Positions 20,371-49,813 of a stretch of 64,000 nt of DNA are shown here, piece after piece. This DNA is from Alphaproteobacteria bacterium (GTDB lineage: Bacteria; Pseudomonadota; Alphaproteobacteria; JAUHZC01), in contig JAUHZC010000003.1 in NCBI GenBank assembly GCA_030425805.1, positions 126,701-190,700 on the forward strand. Direction: 5' to 3'. Each line of letters starts with the position of its first letter. The first letter of the stretch is position 1. Position numbers and translations under genes: made by a program. Below the pieces are notes generated by a model. That model was given only the letters and a program-made list of their open reading frames with translations, searched no databases and was not told the DNA's origin.

Positions 20371-20838
20371 CTATTGAAGAGCTTGGGCCAAGAAATCTAG
20401 GATTCTTGGGTTTGAGTCTTTGGCTGCCAAGATGACGCATTTGGCAACACCATCTTTTGCCACCTGAAGCCGATCCCGATTTCCTTGGGACCGATCTAAG
20501 TAAGTCGTTCCATATTGCTCAATTGTATTAAAAAATGTGCCCATATTCTCAAGAGTTTCTTTGATGCTCTGGATTTGTGCTTGGGTGGGGTCTTTTCCAG
20601 ACATTGATTTTGCAATTTGATCAAGACTCCTCTCAAGACTAGATGCACAGACCGATGGCTTGAAATTACTAAGTGCCGTATCAATGCTTCTTCCTGCAAA
20701 CCGCGCCATAAATCCGCTTTTATTTGCTTTTGCAAGCTTTTCCAGATGCTCGGTGAGCTCCGCATCTGTGTACATAGCCTCACCCAGGGCAGGGAGGCTA
20801 TGTAGTGAGAATAGTAAGCTTAGGAGAAGATGTTTCAT
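20371..20838 (-). CDS. Small secreted protein, distant relative of the upstream gene
   Basis: A 155-residue protein of unknown function. It has a clear signal peptide (MKHLLLSLLFSLHSLPALGE), and the mature part is predicted mostly helical with two cysteines: one in KPSVCASSLERSL and one in KDGVAKCVILAAKD. The gene immediately upstream (20847-21449) encodes a protein with the same spacing and the related segment KDGLPKCFADAVAK, so they are probably diverged duplicates. The two cysteines may form a disulphide in the periplasm. The upstream gene ends 8 bases before this start, so they form an operon. I recognise no domain family. Confidence 0.68.
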   Translation of the reverse strand: MKHLLLSLLFSLHSLPALGEAMYTDAELTEHLEKLAKANKSGFMARFAGRSIDTALSNFKPSVCASSLERSLDQIAKSMSGKDPTQAQIQSIKETLENMGTFFNTIEQYGTTYLDRSQGNRDRLQVAKDGVAKCVILAAKDSNPRILDFLAQALQ

Positions 20839-20846
20839 ATTTTTCT

Positions 20847-21449
20847 CTAGAAAGCAAAGTCATCGCCACCTGGAGGAGGAGGGAAAAAACCAGTTGGCTG
20901 TTGCTGTTGGGGGAATCCGCCAGCCATTCCTTGCTGTTGTGGAAATCCGCCAGCCATTCCCGGTTGTGCACCGCCACCGCCAGTGCTACTGAGCCGTGCA
21001 ATGAGTTGTTGAGCTGCGTTAGGGGCAGTTTTTGCAACTGCATCTGCAAAGCACTTAGGAAGCCCATCTTTGGCTTTTTCAATATCTGAGGTGTTTTTTG
21101 AGGAAAATTCACTCACATTTTGAAATTTCTGTAAGGCAGTTCCTGCACCTTGGAAGTTTTTTAGAACCCACTCAACGAGACCAGGAATATTATTCTTTAA
21201 TCTTTGAAGGTCTTTTGAAATTTCATCATAGCACTTTTTATATTGCATTCTTTGAACATAACCGACGGCTTTTTGTTTGTCGGTTGACATAAAACCTGCA
21301 TTAGGAAGGTTTTGGATAATTTTATTAATATATTCATCATCTTTTGGGCCAAAATACTCATTTGTGACAGCCCGATTTCCAAACATCTGAGCCTTTACAC
21401 CGACAGATGATCCCAAAAAAATTAATAATGCTAAGACAGTTCTCATCAT
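20847..21449 (-). CDS. Small secreted protein with Gly/Gln/Pro-rich repeat tail
   Basis: A 200-residue protein of unknown function. ATG at 21449 is used because AAAGG lies six bases upstream; the frame is open 11 codons further. The signal peptide is MMRTVLALLIFLGSSVGVKA. The mature helical part has two cysteines (YKKCYDEISKDLQ and KDGLPKCFADAVAK), matching those in the downstream gene. The C-terminus is low complexity, with two copies of GMAGGFPQQQ followed by PTGFFPPPPGGDDFAF. Proline/glutamine-rich tails of this kind occur in surface or secreted proteins; a function cannot be assigned. It is the first gene of a two-gene operon. Confidence 0.7.
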   Translation of the reverse strand: MMRTVLALLIFLGSSVGVKAQMFGNRAVTNEYFGPKDDEYINKIIQNLPNAGFMSTDKQKAVGYVQRMQYKKCYDEISKDLQRLKNNIPGLVEWVLKNFQGAGTALQKFQNVSEFSSKNTSDIEKAKDGLPKCFADAVAKTAPNAAQQLIARLSSTGGGGAQPGMAGGFPQQQGMAGGFPQQQQPTGFFPPPPGGDDFAF

Positions 21450-21566
21450 AATAGACCTTTCTCTACTATGAGGATATCCCAAGAAGGTAAAGAAAAGTTT
21501 AAATAAATTAAATCAATGTTGGTGATTTTTTTGGGATTATGAGGAAAATCTCAAATTTATAAATAT

Positions 21567-21998: not shown

Positions 21999-23654
<1,656 letters not shown>

Positions 23655-23741: not shown

Positions 23742-23770
23742 TGGAAAATCAGAGCAAAACCTCTTATAAT
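23742..23770 (+). promoter_or_regulatory. Promoter of the permuted tmRNA
   Basis: TGGAAA (23742-23747), 17 bases, TATAAT (23765-23770). Transcription would start near 23777, just before the acceptor piece. Confidence 0.5.
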
Positions 23771-23776
23771 GAAGGA

Positions 23777-24151
23777 GTTAGCTTCGGTTAACTATGGCAA
23801 TAAACGGCGTGCGAAATAGACGGCGTGGACCCGGGGGCGGTACCCGGCACCTCCACCAAAAAAAGTGAGTTTGTGAGTCCAATCTTTAAGGGCTCCAGTT
23901 TTGGGGGTGAAATAGGATCGACACACGTGGTAAAGGTATTGTCTTTTGCTCGGTATAGTACCACCGTCATCGGGCTGTTTAAAATAAATGCTAACAGTAA
24001 TGTAGCAAATGGTAACTCAGTAGGAGCAACAGGTGGTTTTGCCGCTTTTGCGCCAGCAAACGGAAATTTTGCAGCAGTAGCTGCTTAATTTAGTTTGAGC
24101 TGAATTATCGGGGCCCGGAGGGGGCCTAGCAACAGAACCCCTCCACTTTTT
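23777..24151 (+). ncRNA. ssrA: Two-piece, circularly permuted tmRNA
   Basis: tmRNA rescues stalled ribosomes and adds a degradation tag. The order is permuted. An acceptor piece ends in CCGGCACCTCCACCA (CCA at 23856-23858); a 44-base spacer follows; the coding piece begins at 23903 with GGGGGTGAAATAGGATCGAC. The two pieces pair as an acceptor stem, GGGGGTG with CACCTCC, with one G-U pair. The reading frame resumes at GCT 23990 and gives ANSNVANGNSVGATGGF followed by AAFAPANGNFAAVAA, stop 24086-24088: 32 residues ending in the typical AVAA. The 3' end has GGAGGGG pairing with CCCCTCC before TTTTT (24147-24151). The T-loop reads GGCGGTA and not the usual TTCxAxx; I cannot tell whether this is normal for the lineage. 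Outer ends are approximate. Confidence 0.93.
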
Positions 24152-24160
24152 AGAAATGCT

Positions 24161-24775
24161 TTATAACTCGCCACTTCTGAGATGCTGAGTTGGCGAAGCC
24201 ACGGCTCCTTCCCCTCCCCACAGGGTGTCCCAGGGGATTGCCTCCCAGACTGCAGGAAAAACTCCAGAAACTGCACTTGCTGCAGCGCCAATAGTACTGG
24301 CGGCGCCTATTGGAACTGCAAGCCAGGACCTCACACGTTTTGAACAGCAAACCCTTCCAAGCAGGTCGTTGCCGAGGGAGATACCAACCAAGGCCAAGGC
24401 AAAAGTCGTTTCCGTTTCTGAGGGATGTGAGAGCCAGTCTGGGAAGGGGGAGAGGCACATACCAACTTCAACAGATAATTCTCCAAAAGGAGAGGGAATA
24501 GGGCAGCTTGCACTCTGTGTGGAAAAAGCTTCTACTAAAGCAGAGGCACTTCCAGCAAGATAGGGTAGTATTTGGGGCAAAATAATACGTAATCCTGCAG
24601 CGCCACCAATCATTTTGTTCATAGTCATGATAACGGTAAGTTCTGGCTCTGCTGGAGTTGGCCCCTCCTTCGTTAGTCTAGGTTCAGGATTTTCTCGGTA
24701 TGGTGCTGTCGCACCAAACACCCCTTGTGCGCACAGTGAAAAAACCATAAAAGAAACAACTGAAAAGAAACGCAT
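24161..24775 (-). CDS. Secreted or membrane protein of unknown function
   Basis: A 204-residue protein. The N-terminal MRFFSVVSFMVFSLCAQGVF followed by GATA is a likely signal peptide. A Pro/Glu-rich segment follows (about residues 24-46), then hydrophobic stretches LRIILPQILPYLAGSASALV, FALALVGISLG and WLAVPIGAASTIGAAASAV, which suggest two or three membrane helices. Four cysteines are in the second half, two of them adjacent in RVCCSKRVRSW. No family is recognised. The gene is divergent from ssb with 140 bases between starts. Its stop lies 10 bases after the tmRNA terminator, transcribed toward it. Confidence 0.6.
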   Translation of the reverse strand: MRFFSVVSFMVFSLCAQGVFGATAPYRENPEPRLTKEGPTPAEPELTVIMTMNKMIGGAAGLRIILPQILPYLAGSASALVEAFSTQSASCPIPSPFGELSVEVGMCLSPFPDWLSHPSETETTFALALVGISLGNDLLGRVCCSKRVRSWLAVPIGAASTIGAAASAVSGVFPAVWEAIPWDTLWGGEGAVASPTQHLRSGEL

Positions 24776-24915: not shown

Positions 24916-25368
24916 ATGTCTGGAAGCATCAACAAAGTCATGCTGGTTGGGAACTTAGGGCGCGATCCAGAGGTCCGTCATGCCCAGACTGGTGGGAAGA
25001 TTGTGAACCTCTCTGTTGCGACAGGAGAGTCTTGGAAAGATAAGTCCACAGGTGAGCGCAAAGATCGTACAGAATGGCACCGGGTTGTCATCTTTAATGA
25101 GAAACTTGCTGAGGTAGCAGAGCGTTATCTTAAAAAAGGATCTAAGATTTATCTGGAAGGTCAGCTCCAGACGCGTAAATGGACAGATCAAACTGGTCAA
25201 GAGCGCTATACAACAGAGGTTGTTGTACCACGCTTCCGGGGTGAGCTCACGATGCTGGATAGCCGTGGAGGCAGTGATATGGGTAGTAATCAGGACTATG
25301 GACCTGAGCCAGCAATGCCGCAAGAGGCTCCAGCAGCCCCAGTTGTGGATGATGAGATTCCTTTTTAA
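24916..25368 (+). CDS. ssb: Single-stranded DNA-binding protein
   Basis: The 150-residue SSB binds ssDNA as a tetramer in replication, recombination and repair. The OB fold covers about residues 1-110 ([40 protein letters not shown]). A Gly/Pro-rich linker follows, and the conserved acidic tip DDEIPF is at the C-terminus. GAGGAG lies five bases before the ATG. gyrA starts 39 bases downstream. Confidence 0.98.
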
Positions 25369-25407
25369 GCGATAACTTTATTTTATTGAAAACAGAACGG
25401 AGAGGTT

Positions 25408-28125
25408 ATGGACACGTCACCACCAAATGCCAGTCGGGATGATATTCGCCAAGTTCATCTTGAAGATGAGATGCGGAGCTCGTACCTAGACTATGCAATG
25501 AGTGTGATCGTGGCCCGGGCTATTCCTGATTTGCGGGATGGTCTTAAGCCTGTGCATCGTCGCATTCTCTATGCGATGCAAGAAGCTGGAAACACCCATG
25601 ATAAAGCCTTTCGTAAGTGCGCGGACCCTCTCGGAAACGTGATGCGGAAGTATCACCCCCATGGTGATGCGCCGATCTATGAGGCATTGGCCCGTATGGC
25701 TCAGGATTTTTCCATGGGAGCCGTGCTCATTGAGGGGCAAGGAAACTTTGGATCCATTGATGGAGATCCACCTGCAGCTTTCCGTTATACAGAATCTCGT
25801 CTTGATAAGATTGCAACATGTATTCTCCGGGATATTGATCAAAAGACGGTTGATTTTCAGCCAAACTTTGATGGGCGTTACCAAGAGCCAACCGTTCTCC
25901 CTGCACGTTTTCCTAACCTCCTTGTGAATGGAGCAGGGGGAATTGCTGTGGGTATGGCCACAAACATTCCTCCCCACAATCTGGGTGAAGTGCTAGAAGC
26001 GTGTATTCGACTTATCCATGAGCCGGAAATGGAGCTTCCTGAGCTTATGGAAATTGTCCAAGGCCCTGATTTCCCAACTGGTGGAATTATTATGGGCCGC
26101 AAAGGTATCATCGATGCCTACAAGGCAGGGCGCGGCTCTGTTATATTACGCTCAAAAACACACGTAGAAGAAGTCCGCAAGGACCGTCAGGCTATCATTG
26201 TGACGGAAGTGCCTTACCAGGTGAACAAGGCCCGTGCGATTGAGCGTATTGCAGAGCTTGTCAATAACAAGATTATAGAGGGAATCTCTGATCTTCGGGA
26301 CGAATCAGACCGAAAGGGAATCCGGGTTGTTATTGAATTGAAGCGGGATGCGGACCCTGATGTTGTTTTGAACCAGCTTTTCAAGCATACGCCTCTCCAG
26401 ACGTCCTTTGGGGCGAATATGCTGATGCTGAGTGATGGGCGCCCCCAAACACTCGGCCTCAAGGAAATTTTGACGGCTTTCTTGAAATTCCGGGAAGAGG
26501 TGATCACACGCCGAACCCGCTACCGTTTGTCCCAAGCCCGTGATCGGGCACATGTCTTGGTAGGGTTGTCTGTAGCTGTATCAAACCTTGATAATATCAT
26601 TAAGTTGATCCGTACGTCTCCTGATCCAAGTACGGCTAAAGAGCGGTTGATGGCTGAGAAGTGGCCTGCAGAAGATGTGGCCCCTCTCATCAAACTCGTA
26701 GAAGCAACAGTGACCCGGCTTCTCGGAGGGACTTATCAGCTTTCGGAAGCTCAGGCTAAAGCCATTCTTGAGCTTCGCTTGCATCGCCTCACAGCTCTTG
26801 AGCGGGATAAAATTGCAGAAGAACTTGATGGCATCATCCAAGAGATCAAAGAATTTGTTGATATTCTTACACGCCGGGAGCGCCTGTTCGAGGTCATGGA
26901 AGAGGAATTCCAAGAGGTTAAGAGCAGTTTTGCCGTTCCCCGCCGGACACAGATTGAAGAGGGTGCAGCGACAGCAGATATTGAAGATTTGATCCAACGT
27001 GAAGAGATGGTCATTACGGTTTCTCACCGAGGCTATATCAAGCGTGTGCCATTGGATACCTATCGGGCCCAACGTCGTGGTGGACGGGGACGCTCTGGAA
27101 TGTCAACGCGGGATGAAGATTTTGTAGATCAAATCTTTGTCGCCTCAACCCATGCTCCGGTCTTGTTCTTTACAACAAAAGGAAAGGCCTATCAGTTGAA
27201 GGCTTACATGCTTCCACAAGGATCCCCACAATCCCTTGGAAAGCCAATGATTAACTTGTTGCCTTTGGAATCTGATGAAACCATTGCAACTGTCTTGCCT
27301 CTGCCGGAAGATCAAGAAACTTTAGAAAATAAGACGATGGTCTTTACAACAACCTCAGGGGGAGTCCGCCGGAATCGCGTTGAGGATTTCTTGAATATTA
27401 AGGCGAACGGAAAAATTGCAATGAAGCTGGAAGGCGGAGAGGCGCTGAAAGCTGTTCGCATTTGTGATGACTCTCAGGATGTGCTTCTCACAACAGCCCT
27501 CGGGAAGTCTATCCGCTTCCCTGTGAAAGATCTACGTATCTTTAATAGCCGTAATTCTACAGGTGTGCGGGGTATTCGCCTTGGTAAAGATGATCATGTG
27601 ATTTCTACATCTATCCTTCATCATATGGATGCAGATAGTGAAGAGAGAGAACATTATCTCAAGTGGGCTCGGGCTCAACGCCAAGAAGGTGATGAAAATG
27701 AGGCTTTTGAAACACCTCTTTCCCAGGAACGTCTTGATGAACTCCAGTCTCAGGAGCAAATGATCCTTTCTGTGACAGAACGCGGTATGGGTAAGCGATC
27801 CTCTTCTCTAGAGTATCGTGTCACGGCACGTGGAGGTTCTGGAATTACAAATATGGCTCTAAATGATAAGACAGGGCCAGCAGTTGTTTCTTTCCGGGTT
27901 GAGGACACAGACCAGCTCATGATGGTGACAGATGCGGGGCAGCTCATTCGTATGCGGGTTGATGAGATTCGTATTGCAGGGCGCTCAACGCAAGGTGTTC
28001 GTCTTTTCCGTCTCGGGGCTGACGAGAAGGTTGTCAGCGTAAGCCGGGTACCAATGTCTGAAGAAGATGAGGATGAAACTCTTGATAATGAAGGAATTAG
28101 CCCAGAGGCTGTGGCAGAAGAATAA
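25408..28125 (+). CDS. gyrA: DNA gyrase subunit A
   Basis: The 905-residue breakage-reunion subunit of DNA gyrase, which negatively supercoils DNA. It contains the winged-helix/tower domain with the active-site tyrosine in [10 protein letters not shown]. The GyrA-box [10 protein letters not shown] in the C-terminal wrapping domain separates it from ParC. The C-terminal domain shows six blades of GyrA repeat and an acidic tail. The quinolone-determining region reads [16 protein letters not shown], so the positions equivalent to E. coli Ser83 and Asp87 are Ala (residue 88) and Glu (residue 92). A terminator follows at 28149-28178. Confidence 0.98.
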
Positions 28126-36239: not shown

Positions 36240-36425
36240 CGGAAGCCGCCTCTCTCTTCATAATCCCGTGAAGGTCGAACGGTGATAAAGAAGATCGGTC
36301 TCCTGGCTTTGGTTCTCTGAGAGATGATCCTTCCCAGCCTTTTAGCCAGTGGATTTACTCATCTCTCTCCCCATTACAGTTGCGGGCACAGCTGACGATT
36401 TTCACGTCATTCCCTGCTTTTATGT
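36240..36425 (-). promoter_or_regulatory. Cobalamin (adenosylcobalamin) riboswitch
   Basis: On the minus strand the leader reads GCAGGGAATGACGTGAAAAT (36416 downward), then CAGCTGTGCCCGCAACTGTA (near 36392-36373), and the B12 box GCCAGGAGACC (36307-36297). These match the conserved core of cobalamin riboswitches, including the CCCGCAACTGT element. It precedes btuB by about 35 bases or more. Boundaries are approximate. It predicts that B12 lowers expression of btuB and tonB. Confidence 0.9.
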
Positions 36426-36521
36426 GTCTGAATGACCTACAAAAGCATCCTCTTTTTCTGTTTTCAAAATACCGAAAGTTGTTTGCCCTGGCAAGGGGGT
36501 TTGACTATAGTAGTAGAACTT

Positions 36522-48689: not shown

Positions 48690-49718
48690 TTAAGCTGCAA
48701 CTTCGTCGAGATCTCGATTCTCTTCAATGAGTTCACCAAGGCCTGAAGCATTGCGAATTTTCTTCTCAATTTCTTCCATGATGGCTGGGTTTTCCCGGAG
48801 GAAATTTTTAGTATTTTCCCGGCCTTGGCCAATACGATCATCACCGTAGGAATACCATGCTCCTGCCTTTTCAAGGATGCCTGCCTTGACACCCAGGTCA
48901 ATGAGCTCACCTGTTTTGGAAATACCTTCTCCATACATAATATCAAATTCAACAACTTTGAAAGGAGGGGCAACTTTGTTCTTAACAACCTTCACACGAG
49001 TTTGGTTTCCAACAACTTCATCTTTTTCCTTAATGGAGCCAATGCGTCGGATATCAAGACGTACAGAAGAATAAAACTTCAAGGCGTTTCCACCTGTTGT
49101 GGTCTCAGGGTTTCCAAACATCACGCCAATTTTTTGACGAATTTGGTTGATGAAGATCACCATGCAATTTGTCCGTGAGACAGAGCCTGTGAGCTTACGG
49201 AGCGCTTGGCTCATCAATCGTGCTTGGAGTCCCATGTGGGAATCACCCATATCCCCTTCAAGTTCAGCTTTTGGTGTGAGGGCTGCCACACTGTCAACAA
49301 CAATCACATCAACGCCGCCAGAACGCACAAGTGTATCCGTAATCTCCAACGCCTGCTCTCCTGCATCTGGCTGGGAGATGATCAGCTCATCCAAGTTCAC
49401 GCCAAGTTTCTTTGCATATTGAGGATCAAGGGCATGCTCTGCATCAATAAAGGCGCAGGTACCTCCAGCCTTTTGAGCTTCAGCAATGACATGAAGAGTA
49501 AGAGTGGTTTTACCAGAGCTTTCTGGTCCATAAATCTCAACAACACGTCCCTTTGGCAATCCGCCAATACCAAGGGCAACGTCAAGGTTGATGGAGCCCG
49601 TAGAAATAGCCTCAATTTCAATGGGATTTTGGGATTGCCCCAACTTCATCACAGACCCTTTTCCAAAGGATCGTTCAATTTGACTTAGTGCGGCTTCGAG
49701 GGCTTTTTGCTTGTCCAT
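48690..49718 (-). CDS. recA: Recombinase RecA
   Basis: The 342-residue recombinase has Walker [14 protein letters not shown], the [19 protein letters not shown] block, the L2 loop region [20 protein letters not shown] and an acidic C-terminus. It drives strand exchange and activates LexA cleavage. A TATAAT (49736-49731, minus strand) lies upstream; I did not find the alphaproteobacterial GAAC-N7-GAAC or GTTC-N7-GTTC SOS box in the 150-base gap to sodB. Confidence 0.99.
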
Positions 49719-49813
49719 GTGGAGACTCCGATTATATAGTTTGCTCCCACACTATCAGCATTCCCTGCCCAAGGAAAATGGTTTTTTAGATGGGCAAGAT
49801 AAGAGAACAACGG

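What the first reader, a model, noticed from the sequence alone, without database searches (positions are those of the whole stretch)
23777..24151. Permuted tmRNA with a predicted 32-residue tag
The acceptor and coding pieces pair across a 44-base spacer, so this is a two-piece tmRNA. The tag from GCT 23990 to the stop at 24088 is 32 residues, while common bacterial tags have about 8-15; it includes internal GGFAAFA and ends AVAA. A longer tag may change protease selection or carry a second signal. The T-loop GGCGGTA also merits comparison.
Basis: partly seen in the sequence, partly recalled or inferred. Interest (0 to 1): 0.6.

Follow-up and report, generated by a model that had tools for sequence, protein, structure and literature searches.

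The report
Long, modular tmRNA proteolysis tag
This is an ordinary two-piece ribosome-rescue RNA of an alphaproteobacterium whose unusually long 32-residue destruction tag looks like a normal 10-residue tag preceded by an extension carrying two extra copies of the likely adaptor-docking motif, a design repeated across a whole clade of uncultured relatives.

Summary
Window 23777-24147 (+) is a permuted alphaproteobacterial tmRNA (Rfam RF01849, 222 bits), with a 44-nt spacer (23859-23902) and the 32-residue tag ANSNVANGNSVGATGGFAAFAPANGNFAAVAA. The T-loop is ordinary: GGCGGTA is the commonest one in the class. Length 32 is high but inside the published range (8-35). Among 269 tags from relatives the median is 12; 40 have 20 or more residues and two have 39-40. 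In a GyrA tree the window falls in a supported clade in which every tag found is long; a Micavibrio-like lineage has long tags separately.

The new point is the build. Long tags keep an xNxN motif (canonically ANDN) 9-16 residues from the C-terminus, the same span as a whole short tag, and many carry extra copies upstream. The window's tag is a 22-residue extension, holding two ANxN motifs, plus a standard 10-residue tag, ANGNFAAVAA. Genomes without the ClpXP adaptor SspB often lose NxN (12 of 20) and genomes with it rarely do (6 of 248). The window's genome encodes SspB, SmpB and ClpX. Best reading: an adaptor-plus-ClpX degron whose docking site is repeated upstream. The motif pattern is shown; SspB binding and any benefit of extra copies are inferred.

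The parts
23742..23770 (+). promoter-like site TGGAAA-17-TATAAT
   Evidence: consensus scan, 10 of 12; the RF01849 model also covers a UAUAUU box here; consensus match only
23777..23858 (+). acceptor piece of the two-piece tmRNA, ending in CCA (5' end approximate)
   Evidence: RF01849/RF04321 alignments
23836..23842 (+). T-loop GGCGGTA, stem 23831-23835 / 23843-23847
   Evidence: direct reading; commonest T-loop in 287 relatives
23848..23858 (+). acceptor stem 3' strand CACCTCC, discriminator A, CCA
   Evidence: U70 with A discriminator in 286 of 287 tmRNAs examined
23859..23902 (+). 44-nt intervening spacer, removed in the mature RNA (inferred)
   Evidence: between CCA and the coding-piece 5' strand
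23903..24147 (+). coding piece of the tmRNA (3' end from the Rfam model; ARAGORN gives 24179)
23950..23974 (+). pseudoknot 1 region ending in CCGTCATCGG, 16 nt before the resume codon
   Evidence: RF01849 alignment; spacing 14-16 nt in nearly all relatives
23990..24088 (+). tag reading frame: GCT resume codon to TAA; 32 residues
23990..24055 (+). 22-residue tag extension ANSNVANGNSVGATGGFAAFAP with two ANxN motifs (23990-24001, 24005-24016)
   Evidence: comparison of 39 distinct long tags
24056..24085 (+). C-terminal unit ANGNFAAVAA, the size and form of a complete ordinary tag
   Evidence: last NxN motif 10 residues from the end; short relatives 9-15, long relatives mostly 9-16

Best explanation
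The locus is a permuted ssrA gene that makes a two-piece tmRNA. Alanine-charged tmRNA with SmpB enters a stalled ribosome and translation switches to GCT 23990, which adds 32 residues after the tmRNA-borne Ala. The tag is modular. Its last 10 residues (ANGNFAAVAA) are a complete normal degron, with an ANxN docking motif at the usual distance from a C-terminal AVAA that ClpX would grip. The first 22 residues are an extension with two further ANxN motifs. The alphaproteobacterial adaptor SspB, encoded in this genome, most likely docks on the ANxN motifs and hands the tagged protein to ClpXP. Extra copies would give several docking sites or a longer flexible lead. Shown: RNA anatomy, reading frame, motif placement, statistics and partner genes. 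Inferred: RNA processing, tagging, SspB binding to ANxN, and any benefit of extra copies.
For: RNA family and frame. SmpB (E 1e-54), ClpX (E 2e-21) and an intact 152-aa SspB (G000:C12:23935-24393, Pfam E 3e-40) are encoded in the same genome; the SspB matches the solved chains 2qas, 2qaz and 2nys, E 2e-31 to 3e-30. In 39 distinct long tags not chosen by motif, internal ANxN occurs 24 times in 21 tags against 3.5 expected (maximum 11 in 2000 shuffles); the window alone has two, shuffle P 0.004. In 32 of 39 the last NxN lies 9-16 residues from the end, against 8.7 expected (maximum 18 in 3000 shuffles); short tags span 9-15. The residue before internal xNxN is usually Ala or Val (73 of 90), like the Ala that precedes ANDN in an ordinary tag. 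In 25 Micavibrio-type tags, codons for V8, A9 and D12 vary only synonymously although the search pattern did not fix them, so the extension is read as peptide. NxN is present in 242 of 248 tags of SspB-positive genomes and 8 of 20 SspB-negative ones; it is absent from all sampled tags in four families in which SspB was never found (ANESYALAA, AKSDYAEYALAA, ANDKLAIAA, ANNKYALAA).
Against: No binding, tagging or degradation data. SspB-positive genomes with long tags but no NxN exist (for example L051, L129), and some SspB-negative genomes keep NxN (for example G133 and G030, both 99% complete). The SspB association counts related genomes; five families or so drive it. Long tags are largely one clade, so part of the motif enrichment is shared ancestry. 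Short tags also place ANDN 9-15 residues from the end, so a lineage that merely inserted sequence upstream would show the same spacing. Extension sequence is otherwise poorly conserved.
Confidence: 0.66

Rival explanations
1. The tag is long simply because length upstream of the C-terminal degron is unconstrained in this clade; ANxN copies are remnants of old in-frame duplications with no function.
For: Length varies from 20 to 40 within the clade and extension sequence is diverse, often Arg/Lys rich. Long tags cluster in one clade.
Against: Internal ANxN is kept far above shuffles across lineages whose GyrA is only about 60% identical. Codons of the copies do not match more often than independent choice would give (5, 28 and 29 of 47 against 8.9, 26.9 and 29.5 expected), so the copies are not recent duplicates. 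The first ANxN is often lost while the C-terminal one stays at fixed distance, which shows constraint on the last copy; for extra upstream copies this rival stays open.
Confidence: 0.25
2. The real resume codon is the later GCA 24056, so the functional tag is the ordinary 10-mer ANGNFAAVAA.
For: The 10-mer would be a perfect ordinary tag.
Against: PK1 spacing and upstream context fit GCT 23990 and not 24056 (3.3 against -13.5); in 70 long-tag genes the internal copy never had the better context. The Rfam alignment puts the resume codon at 23990.
Confidence: 0.03
3. The repeated GCNAAY-NNN-AAY words are kept for RNA folding or ribosome positioning rather than as peptide.
For: The coding piece folds somewhat better than shuffles, z -2.8, which is expected of any tmRNA.
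Against: Third codon positions of the motif vary while residues stay, and motif loss tracks absence of a protein adaptor.
Confidence: 0.05
4. A defective or mis-assembled gene with an accidental long frame.
For: Draft assembly of 12 contigs, 91% complete.
Against: All conserved elements are intact, the frame is open, and relatives in the same supported clade have tags of 20-40 residues.
Confidence: 0.01

Closest known systems
Permuted two-piece alphaproteobacterial tmRNA (Rfam RF01849; Caulobacter type)
   Same: gene order, acceptor stem with G3-U70, T-loop, PK1, resume context, tag ending in AA, SmpB partner
   Different: tag of 32 residues instead of the usual 9-15
SspB-docked ssrA degron (AANDENYALAA in E. 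coli; ANDN-type tags in Alphaproteobacteria)
   Same: C-terminal 10-mer ANGNFAAVAA has the docking-like motif and hydrophobic/Ala end at the usual spacing; SspB encoded in the genome
   Different: two additional ANxN motifs in a 22-residue upstream extension; x is S or G, not D
Other long tmRNA tags (reviews give 8-35 residues)
   Same: length in that range
   Different: here a clade-wide modular design in Alphaproteobacteria, with two relatives at 39-40 residues

Membership tests
alpha permuted tmRNA (RF01849) | covariance-model match above the gathering score over the full model | tested here: met
   222.5 bits against 50, model 1-355
alpha permuted tmRNA (RF01849) | acceptor piece upstream of coding piece, 7-bp acceptor stem with G3-U70, A discriminator and encoded CCA | tested here: met
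   direct reading; U70 with A discriminator in 286 of 287 tmRNAs examined
alpha permuted tmRNA (RF01849) | resume codon at the usual distance and context after PK1, frame closed by a stop, C-terminal AA | tested here: met
   16 nt after PK1, context score 3.3 (5th percentile of short tags 2.4), ends AVAA
alpha permuted tmRNA (RF01849) | SmpB in the genome | tested here: met
   E 1.2e-54
alpha permuted tmRNA (RF01849) | transcript is cut into two stable pieces and charged with alanine | not testable with these tools
   needs RNA end mapping and charging assay
SspB-delivered ClpXP degron | SspB adaptor and ClpX encoded in the genome | tested here: met
   SspB E 3e-40, intact 152 aa; ClpX zinc-finger E 1.8e-21
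SspB-delivered ClpXP degron | docking motif of the ANxN type 9-16 residues from a C-terminal ClpX-type end | tested here: met
   ANGN 10 residues from the end...AVAA
SspB-delivered ClpXP degron | NxN motif is retained with SspB and lost without it | tested here: inconclusive
   242 of 248 against 8 of 20; strong but not corrected for relatedness and with exceptions
SspB-delivered ClpXP degron | SspB binds the tag and speeds ClpXP degradation | not testable with these tools
   needs purified proteins

The most novel reading that the evidence does not exclude
In a clade of Alphaproteobacteria, and again in a Micavibrio-like lineage, tmRNA tags have become multivalent adaptor-docking tags: repeated ANxN motifs let SspB bind several sites on one tagged protein, raising avidity or allowing several adaptor subunits per substrate, while the C-terminal unit keeps the standard ClpX spacing.
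Probability: 0.35. Interest if true: 0.62.

Novelty: new variant of a known kind. Interest (0 to 1): 0.47.

Why it matters
The ssrA tag is the textbook degron, and its two functions (adaptor docking and ClpX grip) were worked out in a few model species. These natural long tags move and multiply the docking-like motif while keeping its distance to the end in at least two lineages. They therefore test which spacing the adaptor-protease handover needs, offer natural multivalent degrons, and make the link between SspB and the tag's NxN motif testable by comparison across a whole class.

Tried and rejected
T-loop oddity: rejected, GGCGGTA is the commonest in the class. GGFAAFA as a recurring element: rejected, FA is not enriched in long tags. 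Later resume codon: rejected on context and spacing. Fresh tandem duplication of the tag: rejected for ANxN copies, since codon matches between copies equal independent choice. RNA folding as the driver of the repeats: not supported. A genome-contig scan with GyrA to name the nearest relatives returned nothing. No held paper contains both AANDN and tmRNA, but subscription journals and the tmRNA sequence database are not covered.

Full report
Observation. The sequence at 23777-24147 (+) is a permuted tmRNA gene between groEL (21999-23654) and ssb/gyrA (24916-28125). ARAGORN and two Rfam models agree, and it is the only RF01849 match in the 1.41-Mb genome. By direct reading, CACCTCC-A-CCA (23848-23858) pairs with GGGGGTG (23903-23909) across a 44-nt spacer, including the G3-U70 pair of alanine tRNAs. 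The tag runs from GCT 23990 to TAA 24086: ANSNVANGNSVGATGGFAAFAPANGNFAAVAA, 32 residues.

Is the frame right? The resume codon is 16 nt after the PK1 strand (14-16 nt in nearly all relatives) and has the usual A/T-rich upstream context. In 70 long-tag genes an internal ANxN codon never had a better context than the first codon; in the window the scores are 3.3 and -13.5. So the long tag is the best reading, not a short tag with a missed start.

Is the length unusual? A review gives 10 residues as usual and 8-35 as the range (PMC3968760); a recent database paper gives 10 as the commonest and 2 as the shortest (PMC11915505). I took 269 tags from alphaproteobacterial species representatives (one genome is counted twice). 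The median is 12; 40 have 20 or more residues, 18 have 28 or more, and two (39 and 40 residues) exceed the window's. Low-scoring genomes were examined first, so 40 of 269 overstates the share; against the 352 genomes with a match it is about 11%. In a GyrA tree of 44 rows the window sits in a 99%-supported set of 14 rows, in which all 13 genomes with a tag have a long one; one Micavibrio-like genome has a long tag elsewhere. Named Holosporales, Odyssella, Finniella and Paracaedibacteraceae records also carry long tags, so the window's clade may be Holosporales-like; that placement is inference.

How long tags are built. Ordinary tags here begin ANDN and span 9-15 residues. In 39 distinct long tags collected without regard to motif, internal ANxN occurs 24 times in 21 tags against 3.5 expected, and a looser xNxN 41 times in 32 tags against 8.3. 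The last NxN lies 9-16 residues from the end in 32 of 39 tags, against 8.7 expected by shuffling, which is the span of a whole short tag. A long tag thus reads as extension plus standard tag; the window's is ANSNVANGNSVGATGGFAAFAP + ANGNFAAVAA. The residue before the internal motif is mostly Ala or Val, as if to restore the tmRNA-borne Ala that precedes ANDN in an ordinary tag. In 25 Micavibrio-type tags (ANDNxxxVAANDN...) residues V8, A9 and D12 are invariant with synonymous codon changes. The A and N codons there were fixed by my search pattern for most rows, so only V8, A9 and D12 count as evidence. Codons of the motif copies agree no more than expected by independent choice, so the copies are old or convergent.

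What the motif is for. SspB (PF04386) was found in 338 of 385 genomes, including the window's. NxN is present somewhere in the tag in 242 of 248 SspB-positive and 8 of 20 SspB-negative genomes. In four families in which SspB was never found, all sampled tags lack NxN: ANESYA[IL]AA, AK[SR]DYAEYALAA and kin, ANDKLAIAA, ANNKYALAA. Counts are by genome and not corrected for kinship; one of these families rests on a single 80%-complete genome and another on genomes 68-79% complete; exceptions exist both ways. In E. coli the ssrA tag holds an SspB-binding motif and a ClpX-bound C-terminus (PMC8138137). The window's SspB is intact and matches the solved chains 2qas, 2qaz and 2nys, which are alphaproteobacterial to my knowledge. 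I infer that ANxN is the SspB dock in this class. A solved Caulobacter SspB-tag interaction is known to me only from memory and was not read here.

Mechanism. Most likely the RNA rescues stalled ribosomes with SmpB, adds the 32-mer, and SspB docks on ANxN and delivers the product to ClpXP through the AVAA end. Whether the two upstream copies bind SspB as well (multivalent docking) or are tolerated decoration is open; I give multivalent docking 0.35.

Novelty. The RNA is a plain member of RF01849. The clade-wide modular tag with displaced or repeated docking motif is, as far as the held literature shows, undescribed, although many of these sequences probably sit in the tmRNA sequence database. 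I call it a new variant of a known kind.

Noticed in passing
G361 (nearest GyrA relative; L063, L385): A 99%-complete genome of 4 contigs close to the window's has SspB but no convincing permuted tmRNA (best E 0.51); either a loss, a strongly derived tmRNA or an assembly gap.
   Followed up: partly
many relatives, e.g. G134:C16 tmRNA 48744-49122 and SspB 49263-49724; G037:C13 432203-432569 and 432696-433136: sspB lies about 60-220 nt downstream of the tmRNA gene on the same strand in many alphaproteobacteria (compare), a neighbourhood lost in the window's genome, where sspB is about 126 kb away.
   Followed up: partly
L051 (G005) and L124 (G151): Predicted tags of 40 and 39 residues, longer than the published 8-35 range; one resumes at a Val codon.
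   Followed up: partly
L104, L121, L129, L131, L168 and others: Several long tags from small genomes are rich in Arg and Lys (e.g. GRLNRTRRVVANRNLNVANRNRRQAAVAIAA); why a degradation tag should be strongly basic is unexplained.
   Followed up: no
window 20371-20838, 20847-21482 and 24161-24775 (- strand): Three open frames with signal-peptide-like starts and no Pfam match; the third ends just beyond the tmRNA.
   Followed up: no
window 36276-36455 (- strand): Cobalamin riboswitch, 85 bits.
   Followed up: no
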